From positions 5,419,229 to 5,483,228 of the forward strand of contig JAJEKV010000040.1 of NCBI GenBank assembly GCA_021234155.1: DNA of 64,000 bases, in the 5' to 3' direction. How positions within the stretch are numbered: the stretch's first letter is position 1; every line of letters starts with the position of its first letter. The notes under the pieces are model-generated. The model did no database searches. It had not been told where the DNA came from and saw only the letters and a program-made list of their open reading frames with translations. The DNA comes from Isoetes taiwanensis (taxonomy: Eukaryota > Streptophyta > Lycopodiopsida > Isoetales > Isoetaceae). This document shows, piece by piece, positions 1,620 to 62,197 of the stretch. Made by a program: the position numbers and the translations under genes.

Positions 1620-3317
1620 ATCTGCAGTATCCGTGCCCTTAAAGATAAATAGTCCCCTTCTCTTTCAGATCGACCAAGAAGATCTTAGCAGCAAATGCAG
1701 GGAAGAAATAGCCAAGCTTACAGTTGATTAATTCAACAAGCTTACCAAGAAGCATTCAACTGAAATCAAGGCGAATGTGATGAAGAGGGTCATTCATCAC
1801 CACAATATGGAAATATCAGAACCTGTATTTTTGTCAAATCTAGAAGAATGCAAGGCAAAGCAGGTGTGTGCTATTCAACAATTTAAAAAAAGACAATGGT
1901 AGCCACAAAAAGCCAAACAAACCATGGTATTTGGCGAGCAAGAACCTCGACACTGATGATGGCTTCGTCCATAAAATTGAGATCCAATTCAACTATGGCA
2001 GAGCTCTTAGGTTCTTCTCTATCTTAATTGCATGCCTATTCTTTTCTATGCTTTTAAGCGCTTGAATCTACCAATGATCTTTGGAAGAGATTCATTGAAT
2101 AATGTGCAATCTTTCTTATGATAGGTTCCACAAGGGCAACAATTGCAACTGCTGCATTAAGGAAGTCGGAAGCTCTCCTTGGAAATGGTCCATGGTTTAA
2201 CTTTTAAAGGAAGTTGAGGTGTGATTCTCTCACCCCTGCTTGCAAGCAAAGAATTACAAAATTCTGGAAAGAGAATAGCAGAGTCTCTCCTTGCTGGGGG
2301 TTTTTTAATCCAAGTAGTAATCCGCTTGCTGCGCTTTTGTATTGGGTCCCATAGACCGATTGGTCTCCGTGGACATACCTTCCTTCCTTCCTTTCTTCCT
2401 TCCTTGCGAGAAGGATGTTGTGAACTCTGTTGGAGACTTAGACTTTCGAATTTCTTATCCCTTGCGCCTTATGGAGGTCACATAGATATTTAGTTTCCAT
2501 ACAAAAACTCCTTGCCTTCCTTACATAAATATTTTCAACCACAAAACCACTATTGAGCTGCAGCTTTTTCAACAATAGAAAAAGGCACACCCTGAATATC
2601 GTGTTTGCTTAAAGTCATTTAAAAAGTTGAAGCCTCTTTTTGTCAAGAAAGTATCCGAAACGGAAACCTATTATTGCATATACCTAATGAAGTTGGAGTA
2701 TTCCAGAGTAGTTCTAAATACTTCAAGATCCGTGAGAACTAGATAATATGGTGATGATTGCAAGTGCTCTTGTGAGGTTTGTGGATCTGCTGATAAGTGC
2801 ATGGTCAGCCAACACACATAGGACTCAAGCAACCAACTCTAGAGGGTTGTGGTTTGCAACAAGAGCGAGGGTGAAGAATGGTATAAACACGACTGTTTGA
2901 TGTAAAAATGTCAAAGCTGTGGCATATAGAGTCTTCATATATGTCCAAGAGAAAGAGAAAACCTTGAGTTCTTGCTGGAATGGAAAATGTTTGAAAAGGT
3001 AAAACTCTCTTTAATGCATGCCGTAGAGTGCTAAGATGTATGTTATCACCTGCTGATGTATGCTTTCTGCTTTCAACTTGTACTAATCTTATGTTTTACC
3101 TGCTGCAGACCTTGCTCTAGATTCCAGTAGGGACAGGTGATGCTAGTAGAGTTGCAGACTGTGTTATTAAGAAAGTACCAGGTGATAGTAGAAAGAAAAG
3201 AGCTAATGCCACCAAGAAGGAAAACAAAAGGAAGAAAGCTAAGGCAGCTAGTGGAACACGGTCTAAAAGTATAGTAGGAGAAGAGATCTCGACTGGCAAG
3301 GGTAAAAAAAAGAATTA
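1620..3317 (+). pseudogene. Decayed transposase-like gene (family copy 3)
   Basis: Exon-like blocks separated by GT-AG introns carry the same order of motifs as the transposase-like genes at 9.5-16.4 kb and 17-21 kb. One exon near 1670-1862 reads EEIAKLTVD...EISEPVFLSNLEECKAKQ and stops at a GTGTGT donor. The block at 2560-3000 reads HPEYRVCLKSFKKLKPLFV, then YYCIY, then a Cys cluster (CKCSCEVCGSADKC...EWYKHDCL...CQSCG). A last basic exon (KKRANATKKENKRKKAKA) ends at a stop at 3315-3317. The second half of the family protein (the SDD...HGKG motifs) is absent. Several in-frame stops show decay. Between 2065 and 2560 the reading is unclear and includes a TTCC run at 2379-2404. Confidence 0.6.
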
Positions 3318-4558: not shown

Positions 4559-4562
4559 TCAA

Positions 4563-4582
4563 GGGTAAAAGCACGCTGTGGT
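4563..4582 (+). repeat. Left terminal inverted repeat
   Basis: The sequence GGGTAAAAGCACGCTGTGGT is preceded by the target-site duplicate TCAA at 4559-4562. It is the exact reverse complement of 16652-16671. Confidence 0.88.
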
Positions 4583-5580
4583 GTATCAAAAATGTGCATT
4601 TTGACGCCACATTTTGGCACCACCTTTGTGGTAGAATCGGGTGGTGCATACCGAAGCGGAGATTGCGGGAGTGCGAATTAATGAGCGTCGGTTATTTTGA
4701 ATTTTATGCCACGTCATTGTCCACCTTTTTGAATTAAGAAAGAATCACCTCTTCCTCTGTTTTTTTGCCGCTTCTTCTTGGATTGAACCCTAATGGAGTC
4801 AGAATTGAACGCCACTGGTTACACGATGAAATCTCTCCTCAAACAAGAGATTGTGCCCCACGAAGATCTAAAGAAGCTTTGGGGTGACAGAGTTCCAAAT
4901 AAATCTGCTCTGGTATTTTCCCCAAATGTTTTGTTCAAAACCGAAAAATTAAGGCATATGTTTTTCTTTACAGGGTTGAAGAATCGAGCAATGAACAATA
5001 CAAAGAGTTCATGCAAATTTACAAAAGAATTACAGGGAAGCCACATACATGGGGTGGAATGGCTCCTGGAACCTGGGCAGTGGCTTATTATCTGCATATA
5101 AAGGGGGAGGCTGTTAATTGGAAGAGCTTCTCGGATTATTATAAAACTCCCGATGAGAAAGCAGAGGCCAGTTCTTCTAGACCCAAGAGAAAGCATAGGC
5201 AAATCCAACCTGACGAGGAGGAAAATAGTAAAAGTGACAGGGATGATGAAGATGATAGGGAAAAAACCAAATCAGGTTCCTCTAGACCACACATTCAATC
5301 CGAACTCACAATCAAAACAGAAAAGCAGAGCAATGTTCTGAGACCAAAACATGCCATTGCAGGTATGTTCAATTATTAGTTGTGTTACAACAGAAAAAAA
5401 TCTCAAGCTTGATCTAGATTGTTTCTATCAACACAGAAAAGGTAACATCAAATCCACTTCAAGAATCAGGTATGTCTACTACCATTTTGCATCATGTTGG
5501 CTGTATTGTCATGTTGTGTCTCTATGATGCCATCTGTGGGGCATTTCGTGCAATGGATGCCAGAATGATAGATGAGGTAT

Positions 5581-6140
5581 GTGTGGTGGTGGTGAGTTGT
5601 TGGCATCCACCATGTCCCACACCACACCCCACGATCTCCCACCACTACACTCTACCATCTCCCACCGCCACACTCCCACACCACACACCACCACCACACT
5701 CCACCACCACCACCACACACACCACCACCATCACCACACTCCTCCACCACACTCCACCACCACCACACACACACCACCGGACTCCACCATGTCCCACACC
5801 ACAATCCACCACCACCACACTCCACCACAACCACACCACACCCCACCACCACCACACCACACCCCACCACCACACCCCATCAAGACACTCCACCATGTCC
5901 CACACCACACTCCACCACCACCACACTCCACCACCACCACACACCCCACCACCACCACCACCAAACCCCACCACCACACACACCACCACCACCACCACAC
6001 ACACACACCACCACCACCACCACCACCACACACACCACCACCACCACCACAGCGTGTTGTGTGGTGTGTACTGTGCAGCGTATGTTGTGTGGTGTGTGGT
6101 ATGTGGTGGTGTGTAGAGACTACCTTGTGTTGTGTGGTGT
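5581..6140. repeat. CCA/CA-type microsatellite switching to GT-rich DNA
   Basis: About 470 bases (5590-6052) are almost pure imperfect (CCACCA/CACACC) on the plus strand. They are followed at 6055-6150 by a GTGTGGTGTG-rich stretch and preceded by a short GTGGTGGTG. It lies in an intron of the accessory gene. The long His/Pro/Thr or Gly/Val/Trp reading frames here are translations of the repeat and not genes. The strand switch would let the transcript fold back on itself. Confidence 0.85.
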
Positions 6141-6448
6141 GTGATTGTGGTTTTCCATCGATCACGCGGGCTTACTATGTTAGGAGGTCGACATATACGT
6201 AGTGTTTTGTTTTCTGCACTATGGCAGACTTGTGAAGGAATGGTTGGCTGCAACATCAGCTAGGTTTGATAGATGCAAGCAATGATTGCAAGCAAACGAG
6301 GATAGGAAAAATGATATCAAAAGAAGCATAAAGCATCAGAAATTAGAGCTGATTTGCACAGATGGCAATCAATCATGACAAAGAAATCAAGCGTGAGAGA
6401 GGGTGTTCGGGTTGTGTTTAACTAAAGGATGAAGAGCTAAATGGTACG

Positions 6449-6945
6449 GTGTTGCACGGGCTGAAACAATTAAATAAGGAATTAACAGAAACTGAAATTG
6501 AGCTAAAGGCATGTGAAGACTTACTGCTGGAGCTGCTACCTCGAATGCAAAGATTTGAGATTTTTTCTGAGCGTAGTGGTCATGACACTCCTTTAGATCC
6601 TGCACTTCCAATGCTTCCTGAGGCAGAAGAAGAGGGTGATGAAGGTTGTCCATTTTGTGGACGTTGTCTGAAATGGGAGGGTAAAATGTTGCCAGTTGTG
6701 ATAGCAGAATGCAGTCACCAGTATCACATTCCATGTCTATCACACCATTTGAGGTAAATATTATCATCTCTAACCCTCGTCTAAAGACTCTATTGATTTT
6801 GAATTTGTTTTGCAGACACTCTAGAACCCTTTGCCGCAGCCCCCAGTTGTGCCCACATTATGACCGAGACATGGCTTTTGGCTTTTGGTGTTCGAAAGTG
6901 GTACCACAAGAACCAATAGACACAAGTAAGTCCAAAGAGGGGTGA
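6449..6945 (+). pseudogene. RING-like zinc-finger exons of the accessory gene
   Basis: A coiled-coil-like stretch (LKQLNKELTETEIELKACED) is followed by acidic residues and a zinc-finger pattern: CPFC, 17 residues, CSHQYHIPC (C-x-H-x2-H-x2-C), an intron at 6754-6815 (GTAAAT...TTGCAG), then LCRSPQLCP. Spacing is close to RING-H2, though the last pair is C-x5-C. The same finger with the same C-x-H-x2-H-x2-C core is found at about 22.65 kb (CEACG...CGHKYHVFC), also behind a coiled coil. RING fingers commonly act as ubiquitin ligases; here only the zinc-ligand pattern is seen. The exon ends at a GTAAGT donor near 6926. Upstream at 6220-6440 a matching coiled-coil segment carries stops. Confidence 0.6.
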
Positions 6946-6969
6946 AAGCAAGGTTTGTCCGCGAGGTCT

Positions 6970-7327
6970 CTTGACTTAGTGTTTGCGTAATTGCGTAAAT
7001 TTGAGACCAAGGATATCCAACAGCTTATCCACGCCTCGTTCGATTATGAGGCGCAAGATACCTCCCGGTTGTACCTAGAATTCACCCCATTTGATACTCC
7101 TAAGTCAATCCCAGCTGCTGACGGCGTGGAGACTCCAAAACGAAATTTGGATAGTCAACTGAATGCAGTCGTATCAAGTAAGTACCGATGCCACATACAT
7201 GATTTATTTTTTGTATTTTCTCGTGGTCTTCCTCATTTCAATTATGTTGCGAGAGATAAATGCTCTTTGCCGGAAGCCATCGCGAAGAGATTCCTAGTGC
7301 ATCTGATTTAGGGGAAAATTAATTCCC
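6970..7327 (+). other. Coding-like block between RING and phosphatase parts
   Basis: The frame at 6991-7178 (DIQQLIHASFDYEAQDTSRL...FTPFDTPKSIPAADG) looks like a genuine exon ending at a GTAAGT donor near 7179. I do not recognise it. The rest reads as a short intron or decayed exon leading into the phosphatase-like region. Confidence 0.35.
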
Positions 7328-8137
7328 TTGAGATTCATTCTCAATGCGGGTCCTTCACCGAAAAAAAGTTTTGGTGCTGAATATGAGCCAAATGCGGATG
7401 CAGGTGATGAAATTGACAAAGAAACCCCGGATCCTGGACAAGATGCAGACTGCTCAACGAGTCTAATACAACCTCAACCAAGAAAAACCAAGAGGTTAAC
7501 TGAAATTCTCCTTGTTCTGGATTTTAATGGGGTTTTAGGCAAGTTTTATGACTTGAAAGAGAGGATCCCTGCATCGGCCGAGCCAGAAATGACCATCCAG
7601 AAATTGAACCATCAAAAGTTTGCAGTTTCCAGGCCTGGATTACGGAGTTCTTAGAATGGTGTTTTTTCAAAATTTGAGATTGCATTGTGGTCCAAAGATG
7701 GCTAACATAGAATGTTGAATTGTTGATGAGAAAGTTGCTCGAGGAATATAAGGGCAGATTTCTTTTTATTTGGAATCGGGATGATTTGCACAAACACAAA
7801 ATTAAAGGTGGTTAATAAGCCAATTTTCCTTAAGGATCTGGCCAAAGTGTACCAGAAATTTTGGAGATACCAGTGACAAACACATTGTTGATAGATGACA
7901 AAGATATAAAGGGTTACGCCAACCAGTAGAACACAATGATATGTCCAAATAGTTTTGCTCCCGACCGGGTTGGATTCCAATTTCCTTTTGGAGCAACTCA
8001 AACCATGGTCGGAGGGACTTCGGGCTCGCGAAAGTGTGCCGGCTTATGTGAAGGAACATCAAATGTGGAACATGTGGGATTCTCAAGAGTCACAAGAATC
8101 GCATGAAAATGCTCGACAAGTATTTTCATAAATGAAT
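7328..8137 (+). pseudogene. FCP1/NIF-like phosphatase domain, broken
   Basis: After a Pro/Asp-rich linker and a basic QPRKTKRLTE the frame reads ILLVLDFNGVLGKF, the motif-I region of the FCP1/NIF (HAD-type) family; the second Asp is replaced by Asn, as in some plant relatives. After one frame change come RPGL, SKFEIALWSK, NKPIFLKDLAKVYQK and, in another frame, NTLLIDDKDIKGYANQ. The last resembles the late-domain LLIDDS-x-KA region. Order and spacing fit a whole domain of about 200 residues. FCP1-type enzymes dephosphorylate the RNA polymerase II tail. Stops near 7651, 7708 and 7719 and several frame changes mean it is not functional as it stands. The closing KEHQMWNMWDSQESQ resembles the tail of such plant proteins. 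Confidence 0.6.
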
Positions 8138-8252
8138 CTTGTAAAACTCTTTGAAAGTCAATATAAGTAAAAAAAAATTCTATGATATGTGTTGTACTTT
8201 TTCAATTTAAAATATTTAAATGGATTGTGAGCAAATGTTCTCGTGTGTGTTT
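8138..8252 (+). other. Short AT-rich spacer
   Basis: AT-rich spacer with AATAAG- and AAAAAATT-type runs, between the phosphatase-like and protease-like regions. It may be a 3' end or an intron. Confidence 0.3.
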
Positions 8253-9063
8253 AGAACTAGAGATGATAGAGCTTCAAGCAGATCCCCGACTATCTAAAGC
8301 CAAATACATATCCGAAGTGGTCTTTGAGTGGAACTGAACCGCCGTGATTAGCTCCACCGACATCAAAATTTTGGAAGCTGATACGCAGTGGTTCAATGAT
8401 CAATTGATCCTCCTCTTCTCAAGGTGATACTTTCATCTGATTTGTGATCATCAGGATTGTGCCAGATGATATGCATATGTTTGCAGATACATGGAATACT
8501 ACTTGATTCTCCAAGGAATGAGCCATCCCTTTCATTTCTTTGACCCTCTTTTTCACTCGACATTGTCCAAGGACACAAATAGTTACAAAACAATAAGGAA
8601 ATATGTGAATCTGGATAAGTGCCGTTACATGTTTTTGCCCGCTTGTGATGGATATCAATGACCTGTTTTCTCGATTGTAAACCCGCTGTCTCGCCTGAGA
8701 TATAAACCGGGGATATATCACTTTGATAGCTCGGGCTTGCATGGCGTAAGCACATATTGAGAGGTTAGTGCTTGCTCATTGCATTTTGCTGTTGTGGCAC
8801 AATGACAACAAACTTTGAGTGCAGGTTCCTGGAATTGCTTGGACACAATAATTTCAGCTTTACAACCTCAGATGTTGTGAAAATTTCCAGAACGCCTCTT
8901 CAAACCGATGGTCATTCATGTGTCCTTGCCGGTATGTTCGTTTATGCACAAATTTGTGAGGGGGTACTTAAAAGGAGTGAATATATTGTTGCCTTTGATC
9001 TAGTAAGTCAACTTAAATGTAGCATACAAACCAAACTCTCATTATTGACAAAGTGTGGTTAAC
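8253..9063 (+). pseudogene. Ulp1-like (C48) cysteine protease domain, broken
   Basis: The block reads TDIKILEADTQWFNDQLI, an intron (8422-8486), then MEYYLILQGMSHPFHFFDPL, YMFLPACDGYQ-stop-PVFSIVNP, GIYHFDSSGLHG, an intron (8746-8824), and LQTDGHSCVLAGMFV. The order matches Ulp1/SENP proteases: W-x-ND start, then the [HW]VxxxI strand with the catalytic His, D in the HFDSSG turn, and Q...C in QTDGHSC. Where the family has H-W (GYHW) the sequence has Q followed by TGA, so the catalytic His is lost. Ulp1 proteases remove SUMO-like modifiers, and Ulp1-like proteases are known in several eukaryotic mobile elements. The exon closes at a donor near 9002. Confidence 0.7.
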
Positions 9064-9475
9064 TGCGGGTTAATGGACATTTCGCACCGGGATCTAGTTG
9101 ATGTTAGAGTGTTCATGCTTGAAGTTTTAAGATTAGAAGCAACAAAAGTTGGAACTGAGAGGAACATATGTATTGGGAAGTATGTAGGTGCATGAGTCAC
9201 CTCGTACTTAAATCACTGTATATCTTTCTTATGTACATAATTGTTATTGTAACCTCGATTCATTTCAATGAAAATTCATATTCAATTCATCTCACAAACA
9301 AAGGAATCAAGTGTTTCAGAAGAATTCAAATCTTCAAAAGAAATCAAGACAAACTCATTTTCACAAATTTGAAGCACAAAACTTCACATGAGTTCCAAAA
9401 ACTACGAGAATGGTTTTTACATTTCATCATCATCGAAAAGAACTTGGGGTAAAATTCAGAAAATTTTCTCCTCAT
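9064..9475. other. Spacer between the two convergent transposon genes
   Basis: About 410 AT-rich bases lie between the last protease-like exon (plus strand) and the transposase-like stop codon (minus strand). This probably holds the 3' untranslated regions of both. No further coding signal was seen. Confidence 0.4.
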
Positions 9476-11316
9476 CTAAAGGATCCGGCCTATATACTGA
9501 TCCTGTTTTGACGCTTTAGTTGGTGGCATGTGAAGTCCTCCCGATTGCACGATCCGTGTTGTGAATACTATGCCTAAGGCGTCTTTCTTGCAAAGATCAT
9601 AGGCGACCCGGTTGATCTTAAGCCCTTCTTGTAATACATACCTTCTATGACACTATCACCGGCATGAGGTACCATCTTCCATTGAGTTGGAAGTCTTTCT
9701 CCACTATCCATTTTGGTTTTGTGCACATCGTAATCCAAAATTCAGAACCCTCATCATTCCCTTTGAGCAACGACGGCAAAATTATCACCAACTCTAAGTG
9801 CCTCTGCGCTAACATCGTGGGATTGGAGAGAACAAGGACTGCTGGATTTCACGGTCCTCAATGTCGGCATGCACATTGGAGGATGGTACAATAACTTGAA
9901 GTTTCCAATCATCAACGTGGTGCTTGTTCACACAACCGCCCCACATGCCATCCAAGCGATGGGCTGCGAAGCATGAAAGTTCCCTCGTGCAACCGCAATG
10001 GAGATTCGTGGATTGAATGCATGTACACAATGGATCTGCCTTAGTGTCCAAAATCCTTTACGCACCCCATGCTTTCTTTCTATCTATATCCTCCACCTTG
10101 ACTTCCCAAAAGAACCTTTTTATATTCTTCCTCTTCTTGGTTTTCGGATGTGTTCATCCACTTGGATGTTCCACAAGTAAACATCTCTTCGGCAACTTCT
10201 ACCACTTCATGAGCATTACCCAATTTTATGTTTCGTATTTTAATTGCGGTTGTCTTAACCATCTCTTCAACTCATCGGCTTTGCCATCGTGTTCACCTTT
10301 CCCGTGGTTAGAACAAAAAATTCCACATCATATAGACATCGATTAATGGTTTGTGTACCTAGCCACAAAGTAAAATGGTCTAGAAGCCTTGAATTGAGAT
10401 CTTTTGCACCATCCGAAAACACATAATGTCTCTTTGGAACCCTTCCTTTCGCTCCAGATATTTGTGGTGCTTCATGAAGCGGTGTTGCCCGCGAACAAAG
10501 TATCGTGGTTCCCTATCATCCGATACATAGTAATGTGTTTCCTTGATAATCTCATCCGCCCTTCGAGTCATCTTGATATGTTATTTGAACCAAAATGGTA
10601 ATCGGTTATTGACCCAAAGATCGACCGCCTCTCCTCTTGTTCCTTGAATGTATAGTTCTCTGCAAAATCCACTACCGAGACATGCATCTGGCGGGAGATT
10701 CTCCAAGCTCCTTAAAACTGCTTTTACTGCCATTGGCACCGAAATTATCAAATGGAAAGATTTTTAGACGCTCTTCGGTTTATCCGAAGCTCCTTGGGTT
10801 ACTCATCTCATTGTCTTGATGAGTCGGGTCTCCTACGAGAACTTCGAGGCGTTGTCTTTTTCATAGCCAATGTACTCCCATTTCACTTTCCTAATGCCAC
10901 TTCCTTCCATGGGACAGTCCGAAACTTCTTGATTCCACACGACTCCACAATTTCCAAGGATGCACGCCTTCTTGTGAAACTCATCTAATTCACTCTTTGG
11001 ACACAATATAGATCTCCACAAGCTTCTCAGTACTTGCAATTTTATCTTTGGTGTGCCCCTGCATTGACCAAGTTCATGTGATCTACAAACATCGCGAGTG
11101 CAAGTGCAATTCTTCTGATGTTTGGTTCTCATCCCATTCACCCATCCACTAGCATTTGCATCCTCCGCGTCTTTGAATGCAACAAAGAAACTATTGAAGT
11201 CCTTCAATTTCACAACAAACCAGGGTTTTAGCTTCTCAAAAGCTCGAAGACGAATCTTAATTTCTGGATGTTGGTCCAGAAACCTCTTGAACAATAGCAT
11301 CTGCATGAATATGTAG
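9476..11316 (-). pseudogene. Transposase-like protein, C-terminal exons
   Basis: After an acceptor (CATGCAG, ending at 11317) the frame reads LFKRFLDQHPEIKIRLRAFE, KLKPWFVVKLKDF, then a Cys cluster (CTCTRDVCRSHELGQC...CPKSELDEFHKKAC). Further on come THYYVSDDREPRYFVRGQH (about 10.53 kb), FCSNHGKGEHDGKADELKR (about 10.28 kb) and ADPLCTCIQ. The C-terminus is TRIVQSGGLHMPPTKASK up to a TAG at 9476-9478. The same ordered motifs occur in the plus-strand copy at 19-20.7 kb, and they resemble a widespread family of uncharacterised eukaryotic transposon proteins with SDD, DGC and HGKG blocks. Acidic residues there could form a DDE-type active site, but I cannot prove which. Many stops and frame changes are present. 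Confidence 0.65.
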
Positions 11317-12119
11317 CATAATAACAGGGGTTTTTTTTTGTGTTTTTGTACGCTTTTCACAAAGGTTTTCCTAAGATTTCATGGCGTATATGAATGGATG
11401 TACTAATGCGTACATCTAGAGTGCACCATTTCTTAGTCGTTGATTTAGCTTTTTTTTTTCAATGGTCCAACATCCAAGGGTTCACAACAAAAGCCCTCTT
11501 TTTATTTTAGGGGCTAAACATGCAAGCCTCGTGGATAGCATTTTAGGGCATTTTAGGGCTTTTGATTCCAGACACATATTTGTAGCTTTAGCTTTTGATT
11601 CCAGACTGTTCAAGGATTTTTGCAAAGATTGCGCTTTGAAAGAGGCCAATATCTAAAAAGGATCGATCTGGCCGATTCTAAGTCATTTTTGAGTAAAAGT
11701 TAAGTTCTTTCAAGGATTTCAAGCTTTTCGGCGATTTAGGGCAAATCCGTGACGAATGAGTCCAAAGCCCGCAATTGTGTCTCGGTTGCATGGGGATTAC
11801 TATAATAGCGAGGGGCATGGATATTAAAATCGGCGGTGGATTTACTGGCCCGATGGCGGGGGATTTCCGCGGCCCAAGGTGCAACGGAAGTGGAAGAACC
11901 CCCCGCTTACGTATAAAGTGGTCCGACAAAGATATTGGATGTGGAACCCGTGGAGGATCTGGTAGAATGGCATGCGGCGGTGTGGAGGGTACCGAACCGG
12001 CGCCTATTCCTTCTGTTCAAATCCGGGCAATCCCTAGTTGCTTTGGTACCGCAACTGTGCATCTTGGCCCAGAAGATTTATCGGCAGTATACCCCAACCC
12101 ATTTGTTTGATCCGAAGAT

Positions 12120-12414
12120 AGTGTTGTGCCTGGTGGAAAGGATGGGAGGGGCGAGGTTGCCCCTCGCATGATTTCTCTGGCCGACTAGGGGATCTGGAAC
12201 TCGAATATCTTGATGCGTCACTACCATGGCTTCCGTCTGTACTAGGTGAGTCCAAGCTTGTCCTAGAACGGCCTGAAGAACCAAACATTTCGTCCTCTTC
12301 TGAAAATCTGTTAGGCTTTTTTCCATACAGCCTTGGGAGAATGCCCTCAAGTATATTTTCCTTGCTGCCTTGCTTCTTGACATCCCTAGAAGATGATTTG
12401 TTCCAGAAGGGCAT
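12120..12414 (-). pseudogene. MAPKKK (YODA-type) first-exon fragment
   Basis: The minus-strand frame opens MPFWNKSSSRDVKKQGSKEN, then a basic stretch and a Ser-rich low-complexity segment (SRYSSSRSPSRPEKS). Plant YODA/MEKK3-like MAPKKKs begin with a nearly identical MP-x-W-x-KSSS-x-x-VKK motif followed by a Ser/Arg/Pro-rich tail. No kinase domain follows, and the frame decays near 12120. Its position inside the intron of a transposon gene suggests a captured host-gene fragment. MAPKKKs of this type act in stomatal and embryo signalling; this piece could not signal. Recognition rests on the N-terminal motif only. Confidence 0.55.
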
Positions 12415-13475
12415 CTTCATAAAGACCAATTCGACAAAGAAATGCCTGCTGTTAGACCTATTTAGCTCCAATTTAGCGACCTGAAAGGCTTGAATTCTTC
12501 ATAAATGTAGAAGATCCTCTGTTTTCAGGAATCTGTAAAGGCGGCTTTTGCAAAATCACGAGCTTCTGGGTTACAATTTGCGCGCCCAAAGTGTTTGATT
12601 TGACAGGCATTTATGGAATTTACAAGCCAATTGAGATTGGTTTGTGAAAATTTGATTGCCCATCTAACCGGCTGCAGCAAGAAAATGCAACCTTACAAAG
12701 TACGTCTTCAAAGTATGGCAAAGCATACAGTGGAGTATTTCGGCCAGAAATTAGGTTTTTTTTCCAAATGCTTCCACATTGAGTAGGCATCACAACAACC
12801 TCTTTGCTTCTTGCAATCAATATCTGCAGAAGGCTTCAAAGTCTTATTACAGGTGGCCTTAACCAAGCATCCTTGGAGGTACGGTTGCCTAAGACATCAC
12901 AAACATGAGGTATTTTAATGTTGATGACTTTGATTAGGCCGAGATAGGTTCTTAGAAAACTAGATTGCTCAGATATATGGTAAATCTGGAGCTCTCCAGA
13001 TCATTCCATATTTGTTGGAGATCTTGCACCAGATGTTACAGATTATGTGCTTGCATTGATACCAGCACATGTTATCATATGCACTAGCATATGCACGATA
13101 ATGTGCAGTTTACAATATTAGGGGGTATTTTAAACTATTTTGACAGTTGATTCTCTTGAACTAGTGGTACTGGCTTTATATATTGGGCGCCATGGCCCCT
13201 TTCAGTAAACCTTATGATATTATTGTTTTTGTCCATTTTATAACAGTGTGTTTGCGTATATTTGGGCAGCTCTTGGTATGCAATGGAAATAATTTGTTTG
13301 TCTTGTAATTAATGGTTAGACCCATAAAGTTTACCTATGTTTGTTTTAGTTAGGGCCCGAAGGGCCCAAAATTTTTTTTTTAATATAATAATCCACACAC
13401 AACTACCATTAACATTATTAACATAAACTATTGCATTTAACATATTTAAATTAAAATCCCCCTTAAACCCCCTTT

Positions 13476-13753
13476 GGTTTGGGTGCATATTCACACGGGG
13501 GGTTACGTAGGGCAGCGAGAGCCCCAAAAATATATTTACAATACATGTACAAAATTAACACCATTAAGTACATTCTCTCAAATCTTATAGTATTTTACAA
13601 ACTTTAATATACAGTATACAAAAACTTGTACTTGCATACCCCACAAACGAGGATCGCTATGTACGGTCCAGATCTTGGAATAAAAGGCAAATATGCCCAT
13701 CCGACAGCTCTCGTTGCCCGGAGTAACCCCCCGTGTGAATATGCACCCAAACC
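13476..13753. repeat. Inverted repeat with 47-bp arms
   Basis: Arms 13476-13522 and 13707-13753 are reverse complements with 43 of 47 positions matching; the first 31 are identical (GGTTTGGGTGCATATTCACA...). The 184-base loop has no coding signal. It could be a small foldback element, or two copies of one terminal motif in inverse orientation. Confidence 0.75.
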
Positions 13754-13779
13754 CGTGTGAAATGAACACTAAACTGTTA

Positions 13780-14580
13780 GGATGTGTATACCACACCAAA
13801 CCATGCACCATACCATGCCCCACACTCATCATATTCACCAGAACGAGCACCTTAGTGCTGCGTACATTACCACACACCACACCACACCCCACCACACACC
13901 ACACCATTCACCACACACCATACACCAAATGGTGGAGTGTGGAGTGTGGTGGTGGGGGGTGGTGGTGATGGATTGTGGTGGTGGGGGGGTGGAGTGGTGT
14001 GTGGGTGGTGGTGGGGGTGTGGTGGTGGGGGGTGGTGGTAGAGTGTGGTGGAGTGGTGTGTGTGGCGTGGTGGTGGGGGTGGTGGGTGGTGTGGTGGTGG
14101 GGCGTGGTGGTGGGGGTGGTGGTGGTGGTGTGTGTAGTGGTGTGTGGTGCTATGATGTGGTGTGGTGGGGTGTGGGTGGTGGTGGTGGTGTGTGGTGGAG
14201 TGTAGTGGTGGTGGAGTGTGGGTGGGGGGTGTAGTGGTGGTGGTGTGGTGTGGATTGTGGTGTGATGTGGTGGTGGTGGTGGTGGAGGGGTGTGGCGTGG
14301 GATGTGGTGGGATGTGTGTGCATGTGGTGGTAATGTGGTGGTCGCAAAGATGTGGTGGTAGTCTATGGTGGTGGGATAGATGGGGTGTGGTGGGGTGAGG
14401 TGGGAGAATAAATAAAATTGAATCCACACATATCATACATTAACATGCACACACCCACATGACACCATGGACATAACGCAACCCACACCACACCACACCA
14501 CACCACACCACACCACACCACACCATCACGACACCACACATCACATCACATCACATCACTTTTATCCTATTTCGTCTGAC
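13780..14580. repeat. Large GGT/GTG repeat flanked by CA-rich DNA
   Basis: 13780-13925 is CCACAC/CCATGC-rich, 13930-14400 is almost pure GGTGG/GTGTGG, and 14480-14575 is (CCACA)n ending in (CACAT)n. On the coding (minus) strand of the surrounding gene the core reads CCACCAC, the same sense-strand motif as the repeat at 5590-6052 in the other gene. Runs of GGGGGG and GGTGG make G-quadruplex formation plausible on the plus strand, and the flanks could pair with the core. Confidence 0.85.
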
Positions 14581-14739
14581 ATAAAAAAATCGCCTAGCCC
14601 GCTCTCATAAACACTTCGAAATTGTGACACCACGATAATAATTACATTCCTCTTCTAATCATTAGAAAAGGATCTGGGTCCTAAATCCTCGTTCCTACGC
14701 CCCATTTTTGGCGTTTCATTCCCAATTCAAGGCCAAATA

Positions 14740-14970
14740 GAAACAGTTCATTCCGGAACATGGTAGGATCCATGTTCGAGAGATCCTCGGCTATTGTAGG
14801 GTGACCAGGAGGGCATTCTACATGTTAAACAGGGCTCGTGATCAATCTCCGAAGGTGGATATGCCTAAATCCACCTTCTTTGCTGATTTTGAATCCAACC
14901 TAAAGGCATACAAATGTGATCGGATGCCGGGCCTTCAATGGCTATGCTTGGAGTCGATTGACGAAGAGAG
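14740..14970 (+). other. Unidentified coding-like block in the intron
   Basis: One frame is open with plausible composition (VREILGYCRVTRRAFYMLNR, then PKSTFFADFESNLKAYKCDR). I do not recognise it. It may be a remnant of a captured gene or another element. Downstream to 15.66 kb nothing clear is visible. Confidence 0.25.
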
Positions 14971-15659
14971 CTCTTAGACAAGGTCCATCGCCTTATGTTA
15001 TATCTTTCTTGCCGCAAGGGCACCGTATATTTGTTCTCTGTCACTTGTCCGCCTCGACTCGCAACAAATGGTTTTCTTGGCGAAGTGCGTTACCACCACC
15101 GGGGGATCACGAAAGCACCGGCAAACCTCATCCCGTTAAGTTCGGGATGACCTGCAGAAAGTTTAGATGCTTTAGTGCGAAAAACAATAATTTTGGATGC
15201 ACCAGTTCGAAGTCGGTCATACCAAAGATTTCGTTGCTTAGGAAATCATGCATGTAAATTTAGTTCTGCACAGAGCTTTCAATGGAAAGCCAAATTTTGT
15301 AAAGCCAAATTTTGTAAGATCCCTTTTTTTAATATATCATACTTTCCAACAGAGTCAGTGCTTGAATCGACAAAAATTGTCTTTATTCAACAAAAATTTA
15401 TATCTCGGGATCGGTTAGTTATAGCTCAAATATTTTTAGACTGTACACACACCCGAAAGGAGTACTCAATTACATCATGTTCTAATAATATTCCAAACAT
15501 TAAATATTGCATTTCGGACTAGAGTCAACTACACACAATTCACATCTTTGCATACAAGTGATACCACAATCACCATCATACAACACAATAACCACCACAT
15601 GCACCACCACACTAAGCACCATAACTAAGAAAACATGAATAATGTAAATAAACTAACCT

Positions 15660-16410
15660 TTGTGATTCCTCCGGATAGTGGGCAGATGTTCTTCTCTTAC
15701 ATTTCTCTCCAATCTTCTAGTTCTAACATCCTTTGTGTTAGGAGACACTCACTGGTGTTCTCAATCCAAAATTTTTGAATCTTTTCTATATGTTCATCCG
15801 AAATTGCATCGAATCTTTTAGCCCTCTTGTAAGAAACCCATTTCCCACCATTGTAATCGATCTCTTCCCTTTTTCTTTGCCTTTTGCGTGTTTCTTGGGT
15901 GAACACCTAATACCTTTCCAAGATCTCGCTGGCTGATTTTGTCACTTGTTTCCCGTAATCTGCACGCTGTAGGTCGTGACATTGCAAGGCAACTATTCTT
16001 GGCTGCTAGGCAGTCATTGCTGGTAGAGAGTTTGACAGTCTGCATGGAGTCCCAGAGGCTCCTTATAACGATGCTCTTGGCTTCCAAATCCTTTAATTCT
16101 TCACCTATGAATTTTTCCAATGTTTTATCCCTCAAAAAATCAAGTAAAATTTCTTTCTTCGTGCTATCCTCCATTCTTTTGGTCTGTTTATGGAAAGACG
16201 TTAGCAAATTAAGGACAATACGACGTTTATTGCTTGCACTTCTTGATGAACCTGATCCTTCGCCAATTCAAAGAAGCTCCAATTTTCTTCTCTTATTCTT
16301 TTCCTCTGGCGCCTTTTTTCTTCAACATTTCTTGTTCCTTGGTTCTTCTTCGTTTTCTCCTGCCGGTTTGTGTACAGATTACCTCATTGACATCCATATC
16401 CACAATGGAT
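15660..16410 (-). pseudogene. Transposase-like protein, N-terminal exon
   Basis: The likely start near 16410 (MDVNEVICTQTGRRKRRRTK) leads to a basic, nuclear-localisation-like segment. After frame changes come EILLDFLRDKTLEKFIGEEL, SQRDLGKVLGVHPRNTQKA (helix-turn-helix-like), then GGKWVSYKRAKRFDAISDEH and IEKIQKFWIENT. The exon ends REEHLPTIRRNHK at a GTTAGT donor. The layout of a basic or HTH-like start, an R-x-D-x-[IL] stretch and an FW motif fits the N-terminus of this transposon protein family. At least two frame changes (around 15.87 and 15.69 kb) and one before 16.2 kb break the frame. The start lies about 260 bases inside the right TIR. Confidence 0.55.
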
Positions 16411-16651
16411 TGGAGCTCGCAGCAGGGAGGGAGCCAAAGAACAGGACGTAGGCAAAGAACAGGAAGGGGCCAAAGAATAGGAATTTGAATTTGAATTTTA
16501 GTTTTTGAAATTAGAATTTCCCCCACAGCTGAGCGGGACTCTATTCTTAAATACCGGCAGCTGAGCGATGCCATAATTATACTTTCATACCACAAAAGTG
16601 GTGGATGCAACGCCACATTTTGGGGGGACAGGGGGACAGCCGAATTGGAAT

Positions 16652-16671
16652 ACCACAGCGTGCTTTTACCC
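16652..16671 (-). repeat. Right terminal inverted repeat
   Basis: ACCACAGCGTGCTTTTACCC is the exact reverse complement of 4563-4582 and is followed by the target-site duplicate TCAA at 16672-16675. Confidence 0.88.
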
Positions 16672-16675
16672 TCAA

Positions 16676-17050: not shown

Positions 17051-20000
17051 TTGGCAGAAGAATTTCCTATGACTGGGGATCTACATTCTGGAGTTTATGA
17101 ATCTGAACAGAAGTGTCACTCCTTAACAAACATACACCTCATGCGCTACTGCAAGAAATCCTGTATAATGTGGATCCTGTATTTTCATTTGACATGTTCA
17201 AAAAAACATGTCGCGACACTAGTGCTGGTGAAGTGCTGTTTGGCCTTCTTCAACCCTTCACCAAAAAACGTCACCCTTCTCGCGCGTCACCCGCCATAGC
17301 TATTCCGGGGAGCGGGAGAATTCGTTGGCCTTCAAGATCAATCAAGGACCTTGATTGAAGCCAACTCAGTGATCCTGGAAGGGTAGGTTGCTTTCGAAAT
17401 GGAAATTGGCGGAATTAACATTTCTTTGATGCGAATTGTGTTTCTTGCTTGGAGCAGAAAGCTATGGTTTCCCGATTTGGAAAAAAGCTTTCCTAGCTTC
17501 ATTAGCAAAAGAATTCATGCAATTTTGATCTGGAGACTCTATTCCGTCCCTTGCAAATTTGTAGAGCAATCAAAGCACTTTTCCAATTGTTGTTCAACAT
17601 TCTCAAAGAATTTTTCTCGAGAACAAAGCACCACAAACCAAGGCAAATACTTCCCTTACCGCGGTATAAACAATCCTCAAATTTAGTGAGGGAATCCGAA
17701 CCCAATTCAAAGACATGGAAAGGACTCGCGTTTGTTGTGGTCTTGAAAGATGAGATTTAACTTTCAATTTATTTGATGCAGAATACATTTATTTGGAAGA
17801 TCATGTTGATAATTACAGATCTTCGTATGATTTTGGGGAGCTGCCAAATGCTTCTTGTCCAGATTTCATGCCTTCAAATGTTTTTGATGGAGATATTCTT
17901 GAGCCTACCATGGATTAGCTTTTGTTTAGAACAAGAAGGTTTGTTTCCTCTAATATGCTTTGACTTTTACATATGTATTCTATCTTGGTTGACAACATTT
18001 AAGAATATTTCCACTTTCAGACTTTTTGCATCGGATCTTGGAAGACCAGATGCTTCAAACAATTCAGGTAACACCTATGCTGACTTATTTTTCTACACAC
18101 AACTATCTATGTGACTTATTTTTCATGCACATAACTATCTTTGCCTTATTTTTCTACACACTTGGTAATTAAGATTAAATTGGTTGAATCTTGATTCTGC
18201 TTGAATGAAGGTTGTGAGAACATGTCCCGCCAACATTCATTGGAAGTTATGCTAAAAAAAAAGTCACGAGATAAGAAGGATTCAAAGGCGTAAAAAAAAG
18301 AAAAAGAAGTCGGTGCGGATGATGCGACTCGAAAAAGGTTTACTTACCTCAAGGAAAAAAAGAAACCGGCCCAAAGAAGTAGGGAAAGTATTGAATCAAA
18401 TTTTTGAAAAAGCTAAACCTGGCGGCGACGAAAAAGAAATCCTAAGTGGTGTTTGCCAAGTGGGTGCGAACTTGGTGTTCCATGCACAAAAGAAGTGAAA
18501 ACAATGGAAATGATTGTTAAAAATCGAGGGATTCTTTTGAAGCACATAAGTACTTTCGAAAACCAATCGATACTTGGAGAGCCGAAGTCTTTAATGTCTT
18601 TTTCGCGATTAGTCTTGATACTAACAAATGTGCTTTTGCCAAACAAATGAATCTAAACAGAAAAATTGTTCAGATTCGCGAGTTAATAGAAGGTTAGTCT
18701 GGCGAACATGGTGATGGCCCATGGTCCATGTTCAAGAAAAGCACAAGAATTGACAAACTTTCTTATGATGAAAGAAAATTCATAGTTGACTTCGAGGAAC
18801 AACACTAGAGTGTCTCCTTCCAAGAAACATGTTTTAAAGATCGACATCTAAAGGGAAGAAAATTATGCATCCACTACACTTCTTAGAAGAGACTAAGGTT
18901 AGAATATTTATTGGTTGTATTTTATTTATTGGTTGTATTTTATTCTTTATTGCTGGACTGTCTTCAAAATGTGTAATGCTAATTGTTGGTTGCATGTCTT
19001 GCAGGTCACTTTCTACCAACGTTTCAGAAGTGAATATCCAAAGTTTGAGGTCTCTTTTTCACTATTCCATGCATTGAAACCTCCCTATGTTAGGAAGGTT
19101 AAGGATAGAGAGACGTGCTGCTGTGTGTATCATATGAAAGCAGACTTTGTAAGAGTTGCAATTAACAAAGTCGATTATGATGAAAAAAAATACATGGTGT
19201 TGGTTGCAAGTGCACTTGTGAGGTCTGTGGGCCTGGACCAACATGCATGTCAAGAAAGTGCACCTATGCTTCAACTAGTGAGCTTTGGAGGTCACTAGTA
19301 TGTGCACGAGATGAATCTGATGAATGGCATGCACATGATTGTTTGACTTTAAAATGCAAAAAGTGTGGGCCAAGCAAGTTACCAATATGTCCAAAGGAAA
19401 AGACATCTCTGAAAAGGGTATCAAGTTGATTTGGAAGACATATGACAAGGTGAGGATTGTCTATTTAGGTTGTCTAGTGCTGGTTGTAATTTGCTGTTGT
19501 TTACTGTTGTAGGTCTATGAGCATGTGGAAGAGCCTGATAATAAGGGAGGTTATAAGGTTTCTAAAAAACTAGTAACCAAATTGGTTTACAAATCAACAA
19601 GTGTTGCTGAGATATTTGAGAATGCAAAGACAGTCTTGAATCAGTTCATTCCACACAACTATGAGGGGAGGTGGCAGGCCAAACAATTTAGGGATTGTTT
19701 GGCAACGCTTTCCAAAGGATTCAATTGTTTCATGGAATTGACTTTGCCGAAATTATACCTTCAAGATCCAACAAGAAATCCAAAGTCTTCATTGGAATGA
19801 TCAGTGCACAATTTTGGTACACATTACATACAGACATGCAGCAAAATTAGATGATCCTCATTTAGATGAGAATGAAAGAAGAATTATCAAAGAGACACAT
19901 TTCTACATCTCGGATGATAGGGAACATGACACCTTATTTGTGCAACACCGCTTGCTCAAACATGCAAATTTTTTTAGCGCATTTAGGTATCAAATATAAG

Positions 20001-21230
20001 CAAAGATATTATGTGGTCGATGGATGCTCTCATCGGTTTAAAGGTGCAAGGCCATTTTATTTCCTTGGTAGGTACTACCAAAACTCCCAAACATTCCAAT
20101 AAATTGAATTATTTTGCTTCATACCATGGAAAAGGTATTCTCGAAATGTTTTGTTCTTTTATTGTTGTATTCCTATGCATGGTCACTCATTTTTCTTGAG
20201 ACAGGTGAACATGATGGTGCTGGAGCTGTCATTAAGAGGGCACTAACTCATGAAATGTTAGAGGAATTCAACACCATTGAGAAATGCACATGATGTAGTT
20301 GTTTTTGTAATGCGAGACATTTCAAAGAACATTCCACAATTGAAGGGAAGGATGATTTAGGTATTTTCTCAAAACCCTTTTATATCATTTCATATTTTGT
20401 TTGAATGTTCTATGTTTGTGAAACTACAGGTTTTTTTGGAAATAGGAATTGATGAAGTTGGATGTGAGTGAGAGTTATGATTGTGCAACTCTAGTTGGAT
20501 CAAGTCATTTCCATGCTATAAGGCCTATTCAAAGTGCAGACCCTACTCAAGTTGCACACATGAATTATTCTTGTTTCTGCCACAATTGCTGGCTTGGTAA
20601 GTATGGCAAGTGTCCTAACAGGGAGAGAATAGGCACATGGATTTTTTCCGAGCTAAGACCAAAATAATATAAAGATGAAGCCGCCGATGGTCCTGTTTAT
20701 GAGGGAGATCCCGAATGGAAGTCGATATAATTGCAATTGGAGATAACTTTGCAAAATAATGCCGAGCCTAACAACAAAGAAAAGGTAGATTTTTATATTC
20801 AAATGCAATGCAATAGTTAAACATGTCATTGAGAAAGCATACAAGGATCCTTGGGGCGTAAGTTTGGTAGGAATGAAGTTGTTGTAACAGAAAGTACTAC
20901 AAGTTCAAGGTTGCGTATAATGAAGTTCTTTGGAGCATGATCCTCAATGTAGTGTTTACAACATTTAGTTACCAAGTAGATGAACTTTGTCATGCATCAC
21001 ATGGGAAATAACCAAGATGAGCTTGATGAAGATGTGCATGATCACATCATGGATGAATTTTGCCACAAAACACTACCATCTTGGCACAAGATGCAGTTGA
21101 CTCAAAATCACAAACTGAAAGCAGTGCAAAGGTTGCAAAGAAAAGAAGAAGAAAGAATGGAGACAATGAAATATAAACCATTCCAACCATTACAGAAATT
21201 ACAACCATTGAATTCTAAACATTGACATTG
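17051..21230 (+). pseudogene. Second transposase-like gene of the same family
   Basis: Exon-like blocks run left to right: 17776-17940 (DFGELPNASCPDFMPSNVFD), 18021-18066 (LFASDLGRPDASNNSG), 18200-18900 (KKKPAQRSRES; CAFAKQMNLNRKIVQIRELI; KGKKIMHPLHFLEETK). Then an intron (18899-19005) and VTFYQRFRSEYPKFEVSFSL, FHALKPPYVRKVKDRETCCC, CKCTCEVCGPGPTC...CKKCG. Further on are THFYISDDREHDTLFVQHRL (19.9 kb), YYVVDGCSHRFKGARPFYF, FASYHGK (split by an intron at 20136-20203) then GEHDGAGAVIKR. The C-terminal part has SADPTQVAHMNYSCFCHNCW and a basic tail to 21.2 kb. Motif order equals that of the minus-strand gene at 9.5-16.4 kb and the fragment at 1.6-3.3 kb. Stops and frame changes show decay. The first 700 bases are not recognisable, and I found no TIR. 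Confidence 0.6.
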
Positions 21231-25809: not shown

Positions 25810-25905
25810 GTTTTTATGCCTTCTGTTTTGTTTTGGCCATGTGGGTCTAGGATTTATATAAATCCTAGACCCACATGGCCAAAACAAAACAGAAGGCATA
25901 AAAAC
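25810..25905. repeat. Perfect 96-bp palindrome
   Basis: Every base from 25810 to 25905 pairs with its mirror position; the centre is GGATTTATATAAATCC at 25850-25865. There is no loop. Open frames running through it on both strands are mirror translations and not genes. Confidence 0.92.
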
Positions 25906-25967
25906 TAATTCTTATTCTCATTGTGGTTCGATAAATTTATCGAACCACAATGAGAATAAGAATTAGT
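25904..25967. repeat. Perfect 64-bp palindrome abutting the first
   Basis: Centred on ATAAATTTAT at 25931-25940, with perfect arms out to 25904 and 25967. It overlaps the end of the previous palindrome by two bases. Confidence 0.92.
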
Positions 25968-26570
25968 CTTGAAGCTTAGTAGGCTCGGAAATCCGGCATT
26001 CAAAGCCATGAACATGGTACGGAAGCTTCAAGACCGCCGCACTTCTGGCCAAGCTATGTCGATAACTCCACCATCGCAGATAATTGAAGAGGATTCTAGG
26101 ACCAAAGATTGCAAAGAATTGTTGCCATTGTGATTGCCTCTCTTTGCATTAATTGCTTTGCATCTTCGAGATGCTATCTCCCTATCTCCGGCATCAAAGA
26201 AAAACGAGCTCTTCTGGAAGTCGTAAGTCCAATCTGGAGAGAGCTGGCTCCACTCCTCTGGTGCAACAGACTACATTTCTAAAACTCTTTAATTTGGTAG
26301 AAGGCCATGATGGATCTTTCGAGGATGAAGAAATATTGATTGGTCAAGAAATTCTGGCCAGATTGTTGCAACCCAAATCCTTCAAGCAAGGAGTAGAGCC
26401 TGCAGATCCAGAGTCGAGCAGAGTCGGGAGTGCTTATAAATGCACCATAACTGCATCAGAAATACCTGTAGTACAGCCGCCATAAATGCACCATAAGTGC
26501 AAAAAAAAAAACGATATCAGAAATGCCACAATAAGTGCAGATGGAGTTAAAAAATTCAAAGCATCCTTCC
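25968..26570 (+). other. Coding-like fragments of unknown identity
   Basis: Two stretches read like exons: 25975-26090 (KAMNMVRKLQDRRTSGQAMS) and 26240-26440 (FNLVEGHDGSFEDEEILIGQ). Neither is recognised and no gene structure can be built. Confidence 0.25.
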
Positions 26571-53442: not shown

Positions 53443-53835
53443 ATGGCTTGATCATGTTATGTGTTTACGATAATTAGATGATCGTGCCATCACTGAAAAC
53501 ATATTATAAGATACTTCTTTTTATGCGAGACATAATATGCTCTCAGTATAATTTCATTGTAGATGATCATGCCATTGCCAAAGTACAATTCATTTTCTTC
53601 GAAATGGTTCTTTCTCAACAATATTCATTGTATGGCATAATTATGACGTAATGGATGATCAAGCACTCAATGTTTCAAATCATTATAAATATAAAAAAGT
53701 CTAAAAACCTTGATTAAGTTTAAATTTTTCTAAATGCATCTTCTAGGGCTCTACTATCCCAAAGCTTGTTGAGGAAGCAAGTATTAAGGTACCGTCACAA
53801 GTGATGGTGATCCTCTTCAGTTTTCACCTGTATTG
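53443..53835. other. Left flank of the LTR array
   Basis: AT-rich DNA with no gene. The five bases before the LTR (TATTG, 53831-53835) would be the target-site duplicate, but the matching copy lies beyond the window. Confidence 0.4.
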
Positions 53836-55820: not shown

Positions 55821-55831
55821 GTCTCTCCTCC
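55821..55831 (-). promoter_or_regulatory. Polypurine tract 1
   Basis: On the minus strand GGAGGAGAGAC directly precedes the LTR start TGTAAC. It would prime plus-strand DNA synthesis. Confidence 0.7.
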
Positions 55832-57998: not shown

Positions 57999-58010
57999 GC
58001 TCTGATACCA
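57999..58010 (-). promoter_or_regulatory. Primer binding site 1 (initiator Met tRNA type)
   Basis: On the minus strand TGGTATCAGAGC, four bases after the LTR end. It is the common plant PBS matching the 3' end of initiator methionine tRNA. Confidence 0.88.
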
Positions 58011-58014
58011 ACTA

Positions 58015-60004: not shown

Positions 60005-60015
60005 GTCTCTCCTCC
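60005..60015 (-). promoter_or_regulatory. Polypurine tract 2
   Basis: GGAGGAGAGAC on the minus strand, directly before the LTR start, identical to tract 1. Confidence 0.7.
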
Positions 60016-62181: not shown

Positions 62182-62193
62182 GCTCTGATACCA
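62182..62193 (-). promoter_or_regulatory. Primer binding site 2
   Basis: TGGTATCAGAGC on the minus strand, four bases after the third LTR, as in copy 1. Confidence 0.88.
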
Positions 62194-62197
62194 ACTA

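What the first reader, a model, noticed from the sequence alone, without database searches (positions are those of the whole stretch)
4563..16671. Giant TIR transposon carrying phosphatase-, RING- and Ulp1-like domains beside its transposase
Seen: 20-bp perfect TIRs (GGGTAAAAGCACG...) with a 4-bp TCAA duplication enclose 12.1 kb. Two convergent decayed genes fill it. One holds a RING-like finger, an FCP1/NIF-like phosphatase region (LLVLDFNGVL ... NTLLIDDK) and a Ulp1-like region (WFND ... HFDSSG ... QTDGHSC). The other holds an SDD/DGC/HGKGEHDG protein. Known: Ulp1-like proteases occur in several transposon types, and Sola elements are reported to make 4-bp duplications. Inference: this is an autonomous-type family whose accessory gene acts on host SUMO, ubiquitin or polymerase phosphorylation. 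I do not recall a described plant transposon combining these domains.
Basis: partly seen in the sequence, partly recalled or inferred. Interest (0 to 1): 0.88.

Follow-up and report, generated by a model that had tools for sequence, protein, structure and literature searches.

The report
Plant transposon with protein-editing helper gene
The window holds one worn copy of a repeated family of large jumping DNA elements, probably in a quillwort; beside its transposase the family carries a helper gene that joins a zinc-finger-like part, a plant phosphatase-like part and a SUMO-protease-like part.

Summary
The window element (4563-16671) has 20-bp perfect TIRs and a TCAA duplication. It belongs to a repeated family in its genome, probably Isoetes taiwanensis (inferred from assembly size). 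The 13-bp TIR core occurs 823 times there, against 45 for the reversed control. Of 15 TIR pairs read, 14 have perfect 4-bp duplications, all different.

Two subfamilies (A = window, B) carry the same two convergent genes. Gene 1 is an integrase-fold transposase with three invariant Asp; open frames of 540-629 codons exist elsewhere in the genome. Gene 2 encodes an N-terminal domain, a RING-like finger (below Pfam cut-off), an NIF/FCP1-like domain (E 4e-17) and a Ulp1/C48 domain (E 2e-5). Of 97 listed B-like transposase loci, 39 have a listed NIF and 38 a listed C48 match within 20 kb, every one downstream and convergent (about 0.3 expected). So gene 2 belongs to the element. Its NIF domain resembles land-plant host proteins. 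NIF and C48 stand in opposite order in A and B.

Sola membership is plausible but was not testable. The helper's function is inference: most likely a trans-acting editor of SUMO/ubiquitin marks that counters silencing. Some frame breaks may be sequencing residue.

The parts
4559..4562 (.). left 4-bp target duplication TCAA
4563..4582 (+). left TIR, 20 bp
   Evidence: identical to reverse complement of 16652-16671
4793..5277 (+). accessory gene, N-terminal domain (two exon pieces 4793-4915 and 4975-5277)
   Evidence: frames; conserved in 12 of 12 A copies; homologous to B, E 3e-6
5600..6150 (.). CAC/GTG-rich stretch, probably within an intron of the accessory gene
   Evidence: sequence and repeats; intron is inference
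6422..6927 (+). accessory gene, coiled-coil and RING-like finger exons
   Evidence: best zf-rbx1, 17 bits against cut-off 31; present in 11 of 12 A copies; B homologue E 1e-4; called RING-like only
7403..8126 (+). accessory gene, NIF/FCP1-like domain (broken frame in this copy)
   Evidence: majority reading of 11 copies hits PF03031, E 4.1e-17; plant relatives
8371..9002 (+). accessory gene, Ulp1/C48-like domain (broken frame in this copy)
   Evidence: majority reading hits PF02902, E 1.6e-5; residues compared over 11 copies
9607..11300 (-). transposase, catalytic part (broken frame); DFAEN, SDG and HGKGEHDG blocks by eye near 10670, 10410 and 10290
   Evidence: homologous to B transposase P0001; present in 11 of 12 A copies
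11310..13757 (.). nested insertion, not part of the family element
   Evidence: absent from L014; possible TGAA duplication by eye
13860..14560 (.). CAC/GTG-rich stretch between transposase exons
   Evidence: sequence and repeats
15821..16174 (-). transposase, N-terminal exon
   Evidence: frame; present in 12 of 12 A copies
16652..16671 (-). right TIR, 20 bp
16672..16675 (.). right 4-bp target duplication TCAA

Best explanation
The window holds one inactivated member of a large family of two-gene DNA transposons. The transposase (integrase/RNase H fold, three invariant Asp) recognises the GGGTAAAAGCACG ends, cuts the element out and joins it to new sites with a 4-bp stagger (shown: fold, residues, ends, duplications; inferred: the chemistry and the excision step). 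The convergent second gene is an integral part of the family and not a one-off passenger (shown by co-location). It encodes a fusion of a RING-like finger, a plant-derived NIF/FCP1-like domain and a Ulp1/C48-like domain; that these are spliced into one protein is inferred from frames and exon edges. Most likely this protein acts in trans, editing SUMO/ubiquitin marks on host chromatin or silencing factors so that the family escapes repression (inferred; about 40% for this step alone). The NIF part may bind rather than cut, because its motif is D-x-N.
Against: No activity was measured. The accessory pieces that could be tested show weaker constraint than the transposase: NIF end dN/dS 0.31-0.71 where defined (one pair 0, one saturated), C-terminal extension 0.47-2.0 (two pairs undefined). 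Of 97 transposase loci, 58 had no listed NIF partner, though lists were capped. C48 in A and B match only at E 0.07. The finger is below Pfam's cut-off. One A-ended copy lacks the domains. The window copy itself is broken.
Confidence: 0.72

Rival explanations
1. The accessory protein helps transposition directly: it trims SUMO or ubiquitin from the transposase or from DNA-repair factors at the cut site, and does not act on silencing.
For: Ginger1 transposases carry Ulp1 or OTU at their C-terminus and a role in transposition or repair was proposed (PMC2836005, passages); one distant relative of this transposase, P0096, carries an OTU domain in the same chain (E 1.4e-5).
Against: Here the domains are on a separate, convergent gene; no direct test.
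Confidence: 0.3
2. The accessory domains are captured host pieces carried along without function.
For: The NIF domain is plant-like; weak constraint in the testable accessory pieces; capture of host genes by plant transposons is common (PMC13317346, passages).
Against: The same domains recur with the transposase in A, B and further lineages whose transposases are 54-71% identical to L034's, and many NIF and C48 matches have open frames.
Confidence: 0.15
3. The element is virus-like and self-replicating (Polinton or virophage type) and not a cut-and-paste transposon.
For: Size of about 10 kb, a protease-like gene and an integrase-fold enzyme.
Against: Only two genes were recognised; no polymerase, capsid or ATPase was noticed in the frames printed and no Pfam scan was made for them over the whole element. 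No relative was confirmed in one scan of IMG/VR viral contigs. Ends are short and duplications 4 bp.
Confidence: 0.02

Closest known systems
Sola DNA transposons (Sola2 in particular)
   Same: 4-bp duplications and short TIRs: Sola2-type elements with 12-21-bp TIRs and 4-bp duplications are described in PMC3627910 (passages); DDD transposase is recalled. Sola is listed for Physcomitrella and Capsicum (PMC9033089, passages).
   Different: No Sola protein could be compared here. Sola2 duplications in PMC3627910 are AT-rich; here 18 of 56 letters in 14 duplications are G or C. No accessory RING/NIF/C48 gene was seen in the Sola passages read.
Vandal MULEs with VANC/KIU (Kaonashi) genes of Arabidopsis
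   Same: A plant DNA transposon with a non-transposase gene that carries a Ulp1 domain; acts on methylation of related elements (PMC13317346, passages).
   Different: Those are non-TIR MULEs; the transposase here matches no Pfam family at its cut-off, has 20-bp TIRs and 4-bp duplications, and its accessory gene also has NIF and RING-like parts.
Ginger1 DNA transposons
   Same: Integrase-fold transposase, elements with Ulp1 or OTU domains (PMC2836005, passages).
   Different: In Ginger1 the protease is the C-terminus of the transposase; here it is on a second gene.
Land-plant FCP1-like/NIF host proteins (Magnolia, Populus, Morus and others)
   Same: Probable source of the NIF domain: the six named hits are 29-41% identical; LLIDD and D-x-N/A motifs shared.
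   Different: The 15 proteins found are 240-362 aa; 14 carry NIF as their only precomputed Pfam domain and one none.

Membership tests
DDE/D (RNase H-like) transposases | three conserved acidic residues | tested here: met
   D in DFxEN, SDG and HGKxxxD invariant in 26 of 26 and 45 of 45 aligned rows
DDE/D (RNase H-like) transposases | integrase/RNase H fold of the catalytic core | tested here: met
Sola superfamily | 4-bp target duplication | tested here: met
   14 of 15 pairs perfect
Sola superfamily | DDD transposase | tested here: met
   that Sola is DDD is recalled
Sola superfamily | sequence similarity to Sola1, Sola2 or Sola3 transposases | not testable with these tools
   reference proteins and the founding papers are not held
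Kolobok or piggyBac | TTAA-specific duplication (PMC9587614, passages) | tested here: not met
   1 of 14 perfect duplications is TTAA
Ginger1 | Ulp1 or OTU at the transposase C-terminus (PMC2836005, passages) | tested here: not met
   C48 lies on a second, convergent gene
MULE (VANC/KIU type) | MULE transposase | tested here: inconclusive
   no Pfam family reached its cut-off with two transposases of this genome and homologue P0002
NIF/FCP1-like domain (PF03031) | profile match above curated cut-off | tested here: met
   62.7 bits against 21.8, majority reading
NIF/FCP1-like phosphatases | D-x-D catalytic motif | tested here: not met
   VLDFNG in the copies with an open motif; plant relatives also N or A
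Ulp1/C48 peptidases (PF02902) | profile match above curated cut-off | tested here: met
   A reading 25.3 bits and B exon 32.8 bits against 20.7
Ulp1/C48 peptidases | His, Asp, Gln, Cys of the active site | tested here: met
   HHW, FDSSG, LQTDGHSCG in L014; lost in the window copy; residue roles recalled
RING fingers | profile match above curated cut-off | tested here: not met
   best 17 bits against 31, 16.1 against 31

The most novel reading that the evidence does not exclude
The family carries a purpose-built anti-silencing protein that joins ubiquitin-ligase-like, phosphatase-fold and SUMO-protease-like modules in one chain: a transposon that edits several kinds of host protein marks, with a phosphatase-fold domain captured from the plant host and with the order of modules swapped between its lineages.
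Probability: 0.33. Interest if true: 0.82.

Novelty: new variant of a known kind. Interest (0 to 1): 0.63.

Why it matters
Ulp1-like genes recur in unrelated transposons and the reason is still open. A family with open transposase frames, in a plant genome with long scaffolds, whose accessory gene adds a captured plant phosphatase-fold domain and a RING-like finger, makes the question testable: express the accessory protein and ask whether SUMO conjugates or DNA methylation of family members change. It also adds transposases that Pfam does not recognise at its cut-offs, and a case of module reordering inside a transposon gene.

Tried and rejected
Virus-like element: one IMG/VR scan with the transposase alignment gave 12 pattern hits and no confirmed relative.

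Homologues of the whole accessory protein: none at E 0.01 or better with an 838-aa reading in the 5.8-billion-protein search. The reading is a majority of broken copies and the tool needs shared 5-residue words, so this is weak evidence of absence.

Protein-level selection on the C48 exon: suggested at first by about 40 matches at 91-99% aa identity, nearly all without stops, beside decayed neighbours; not upheld, because the DNA of the 40 best-scoring copies is 97-100% identical too. Why the neighbouring exons differ more stays open: the NIF DNA query did not complete. One search used a hand-transcribed subset of the rows; one search repeats the order count with all 150 C48 rows and all 150 listed NIF rows (153 matches reported), merged to 148 and 136.

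Structural matches: other transposase families missing from the list are not excluded.

Pfam, NCBIfam: no family at its cut-off for the transposases of L011 (Pfam), L034 and P0002 (both libraries).

Literature: searches of the PMC library listed no paper whose title or abstract start describes an NIF/FCP1 domain, or this RING-NIF-C48 combination, in a transposon. That is not proof that nothing is in print.
Full report
OBSERVATION. The element at 4563-16671 is bounded by 20-bp perfect TIRs and a TCAA duplication. The whole genome behind the window is held (1,658,258,908 bases in 1110 contigs); the 13-bp core GGGTAAAAGCACG occurs 409 + 414 times there, against 17 + 28 for the reversed control. 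The host is very probably Isoetes taiwanensis: its published assembly is 1658.30 Mb in 204 scaffolds plus 909 contigs (PMC8566536, passages).

COPIES. The first 100 listed core places (of 823) hold 22 neighbouring +/- pairs within 40 kb and 1 -/+ pair. I fetched the 14 of these pairs that span 9.5-13.1 kb. With the window, 14 of 15 have perfect 4-bp duplications, all different; the other (L025L026) has one mismatch. Twelve have A-type ends and three B-type ends. Eleven A copies are 86-91% identical over most of their length; L025L026 shares little more than its ends. B copies show no DNA match to A but have the same two genes by protein comparison. The window copy is longer than most because of a nested insertion at 11310-13757.

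ACCESSORY GENE. An exon-wise majority reading of 11 A copies matches Pfam NIF (E 4e-17) and Peptidase_C48 (E 1.6e-5), both above cut-off; RING models stay below cut-off; the N-terminal part matches nothing. The raw window pieces alone gave no NIF or C48 hit. The B copy's C48 exon matches Pfam directly (E 8e-8), its NIF pieces do not. A and B readings are similar in the N domain (E 3e-6), finger (1e-4) and NIF (3e-11), weakly in C48 (0.07). Order: N-RING-NIF-C48 in 11 of 12 A copies, but C48 before NIF in B and its relatives: of 148 listed C48 loci, 104 have a listed NIF match within 6 kb, all 104 downstream on the same strand; 44 have none listed. Of 97 transposase loci, 39 have NIF and 38 have C48 within 20 kb, every one downstream and convergent; chance expectation is about 0.3 for each. 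NIF also lies convergent in L053, L055 and L056, whose transposases are 54-57% identical to L034's. So the gene is a standing part of the family.

AGAINST. Constraint on the accessory pieces that could be tested is weaker than on the transposase (NIF end 0.31-0.71 where defined, with one pair 0; C-terminal extension 0.47-2.0), and no complete accessory gene was read in an intact element.

ORIGIN. The NIF reading finds 15 proteins; the six named ones are land-plant proteins (Magnolia, two of Populus, Morus, Sarracenia, Dovyalis), 29-41% identical. The eight aligned have D-x-N or D-x-A at the motif, as the transposon does, so capture from a plant host gene is likely and catalysis uncertain. An 838-aa reading of the whole accessory protein finds no relative.

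CATALYTIC STATE. Of 11 A copies, L014 reads HHW, FDSSG and LQTDGHSCG, the full set expected of C48; five of 11 read HH at the His site (L010, L014, L016, L019L020, L027L028), four of them HHW. The window copy has Tyr and a stop there. So this copy is dead as a protease while less broken copies exist.

DECAY OR ERROR. Among ten A copies, substitutions are 6.1% of aligned columns and gap events 0.47 per substitution, 65% of them single-base. Five pairs of loci with open or nearly open frames give 0.04-0.27, but two pairs of the window's own tandem units also give 0.42. The assembly rests on Nanopore reads with polishing (PMC8566536, passage). Part of the frame breaks may therefore be sequencing residue; this is inference.

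MECHANISM. Cut-and-paste movement by the DDD transposase at the shared ends is the straightforward reading. For the accessory gene I favour a trans-acting editor of SUMO/ubiquitin marks that counters silencing, by analogy with VANC/KIU genes of Vandal MULEs (PMC13317346, passages). The main rival is direct help in transposition or repair, as proposed for Ginger1 (PMC2836005, passages). Nothing here measures activity.

KNOWN OR NEW. Sola is the best-fitting named superfamily (4-bp duplications, DDD), but no Sola protein could be compared, so it is not filed there. Ulp1 in transposons is known. A transposon gene joining a RING-like finger, a plant NIF domain and C48 appeared in none of the listings read. 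I rate it a new variant of a known kind.

Noticed in passing
window 4604-4616 and 16610-16622: A subterminal motif ACGCCACATTTTG lies 42 bp from the left end and 62 bp from the right end in the same orientation (direct, not inverted); both are present in 6 of 12 A copies. Possibly a transposase binding site.
   Followed up: partly
window 2558-2965 and 18700-20600: Two divergent, broken relatives of the transposase flank the element (26-29% identical to the window's piece; DFAEN-like and SDD blocks by eye in the second), so three related insertions lie within about 20 kb.
   Followed up: partly
G000 C106, C328, C348, C586, C767, C778 (one search places): Six of 22 TIR pairs span 20.9-23.3 kb, a second size class; in C767, C328 and C348 B-type NIF or transposase matches lie inside and the extra length is on the side of the transposase's 5' end. 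Content unread.
   Followed up: partly
L025-L026 (G000 C208:137450-149600): Element with A ends and the outermost exons but about 10 kb of different interior.
   Followed up: partly
window 11310-13757: Nested insertion of about 2.45 kb in the transposase gene; its end holds a 47-nt inverted repeat (13476-13522 / 13707-13753, 91%).
   Followed up: partly
window 53800-64000: Tandem units of about 4.18 kb, nearly identical over long stretches.
   Followed up: no
window 25810-25905 and 25896-25975: A perfect 48-nt inverted repeat with no spacer, followed by an overlapping 40-nt one at 93%.
   Followed up: no
P0096: A distant relative of the transposase from a metagenome has an OTU protease domain in the same chain (E 1.4e-5).
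   Followed up: partly
G000, e.g. C1056:16106273, C919:11298767, C1049:7045876: B-type C48 exons at 97-98% aa (98-99% DNA) beside NIF exons at 53-72% with stops in the same copies; unexplained mosaic, perhaps error clusters or gene conversion.
   Followed up: partly
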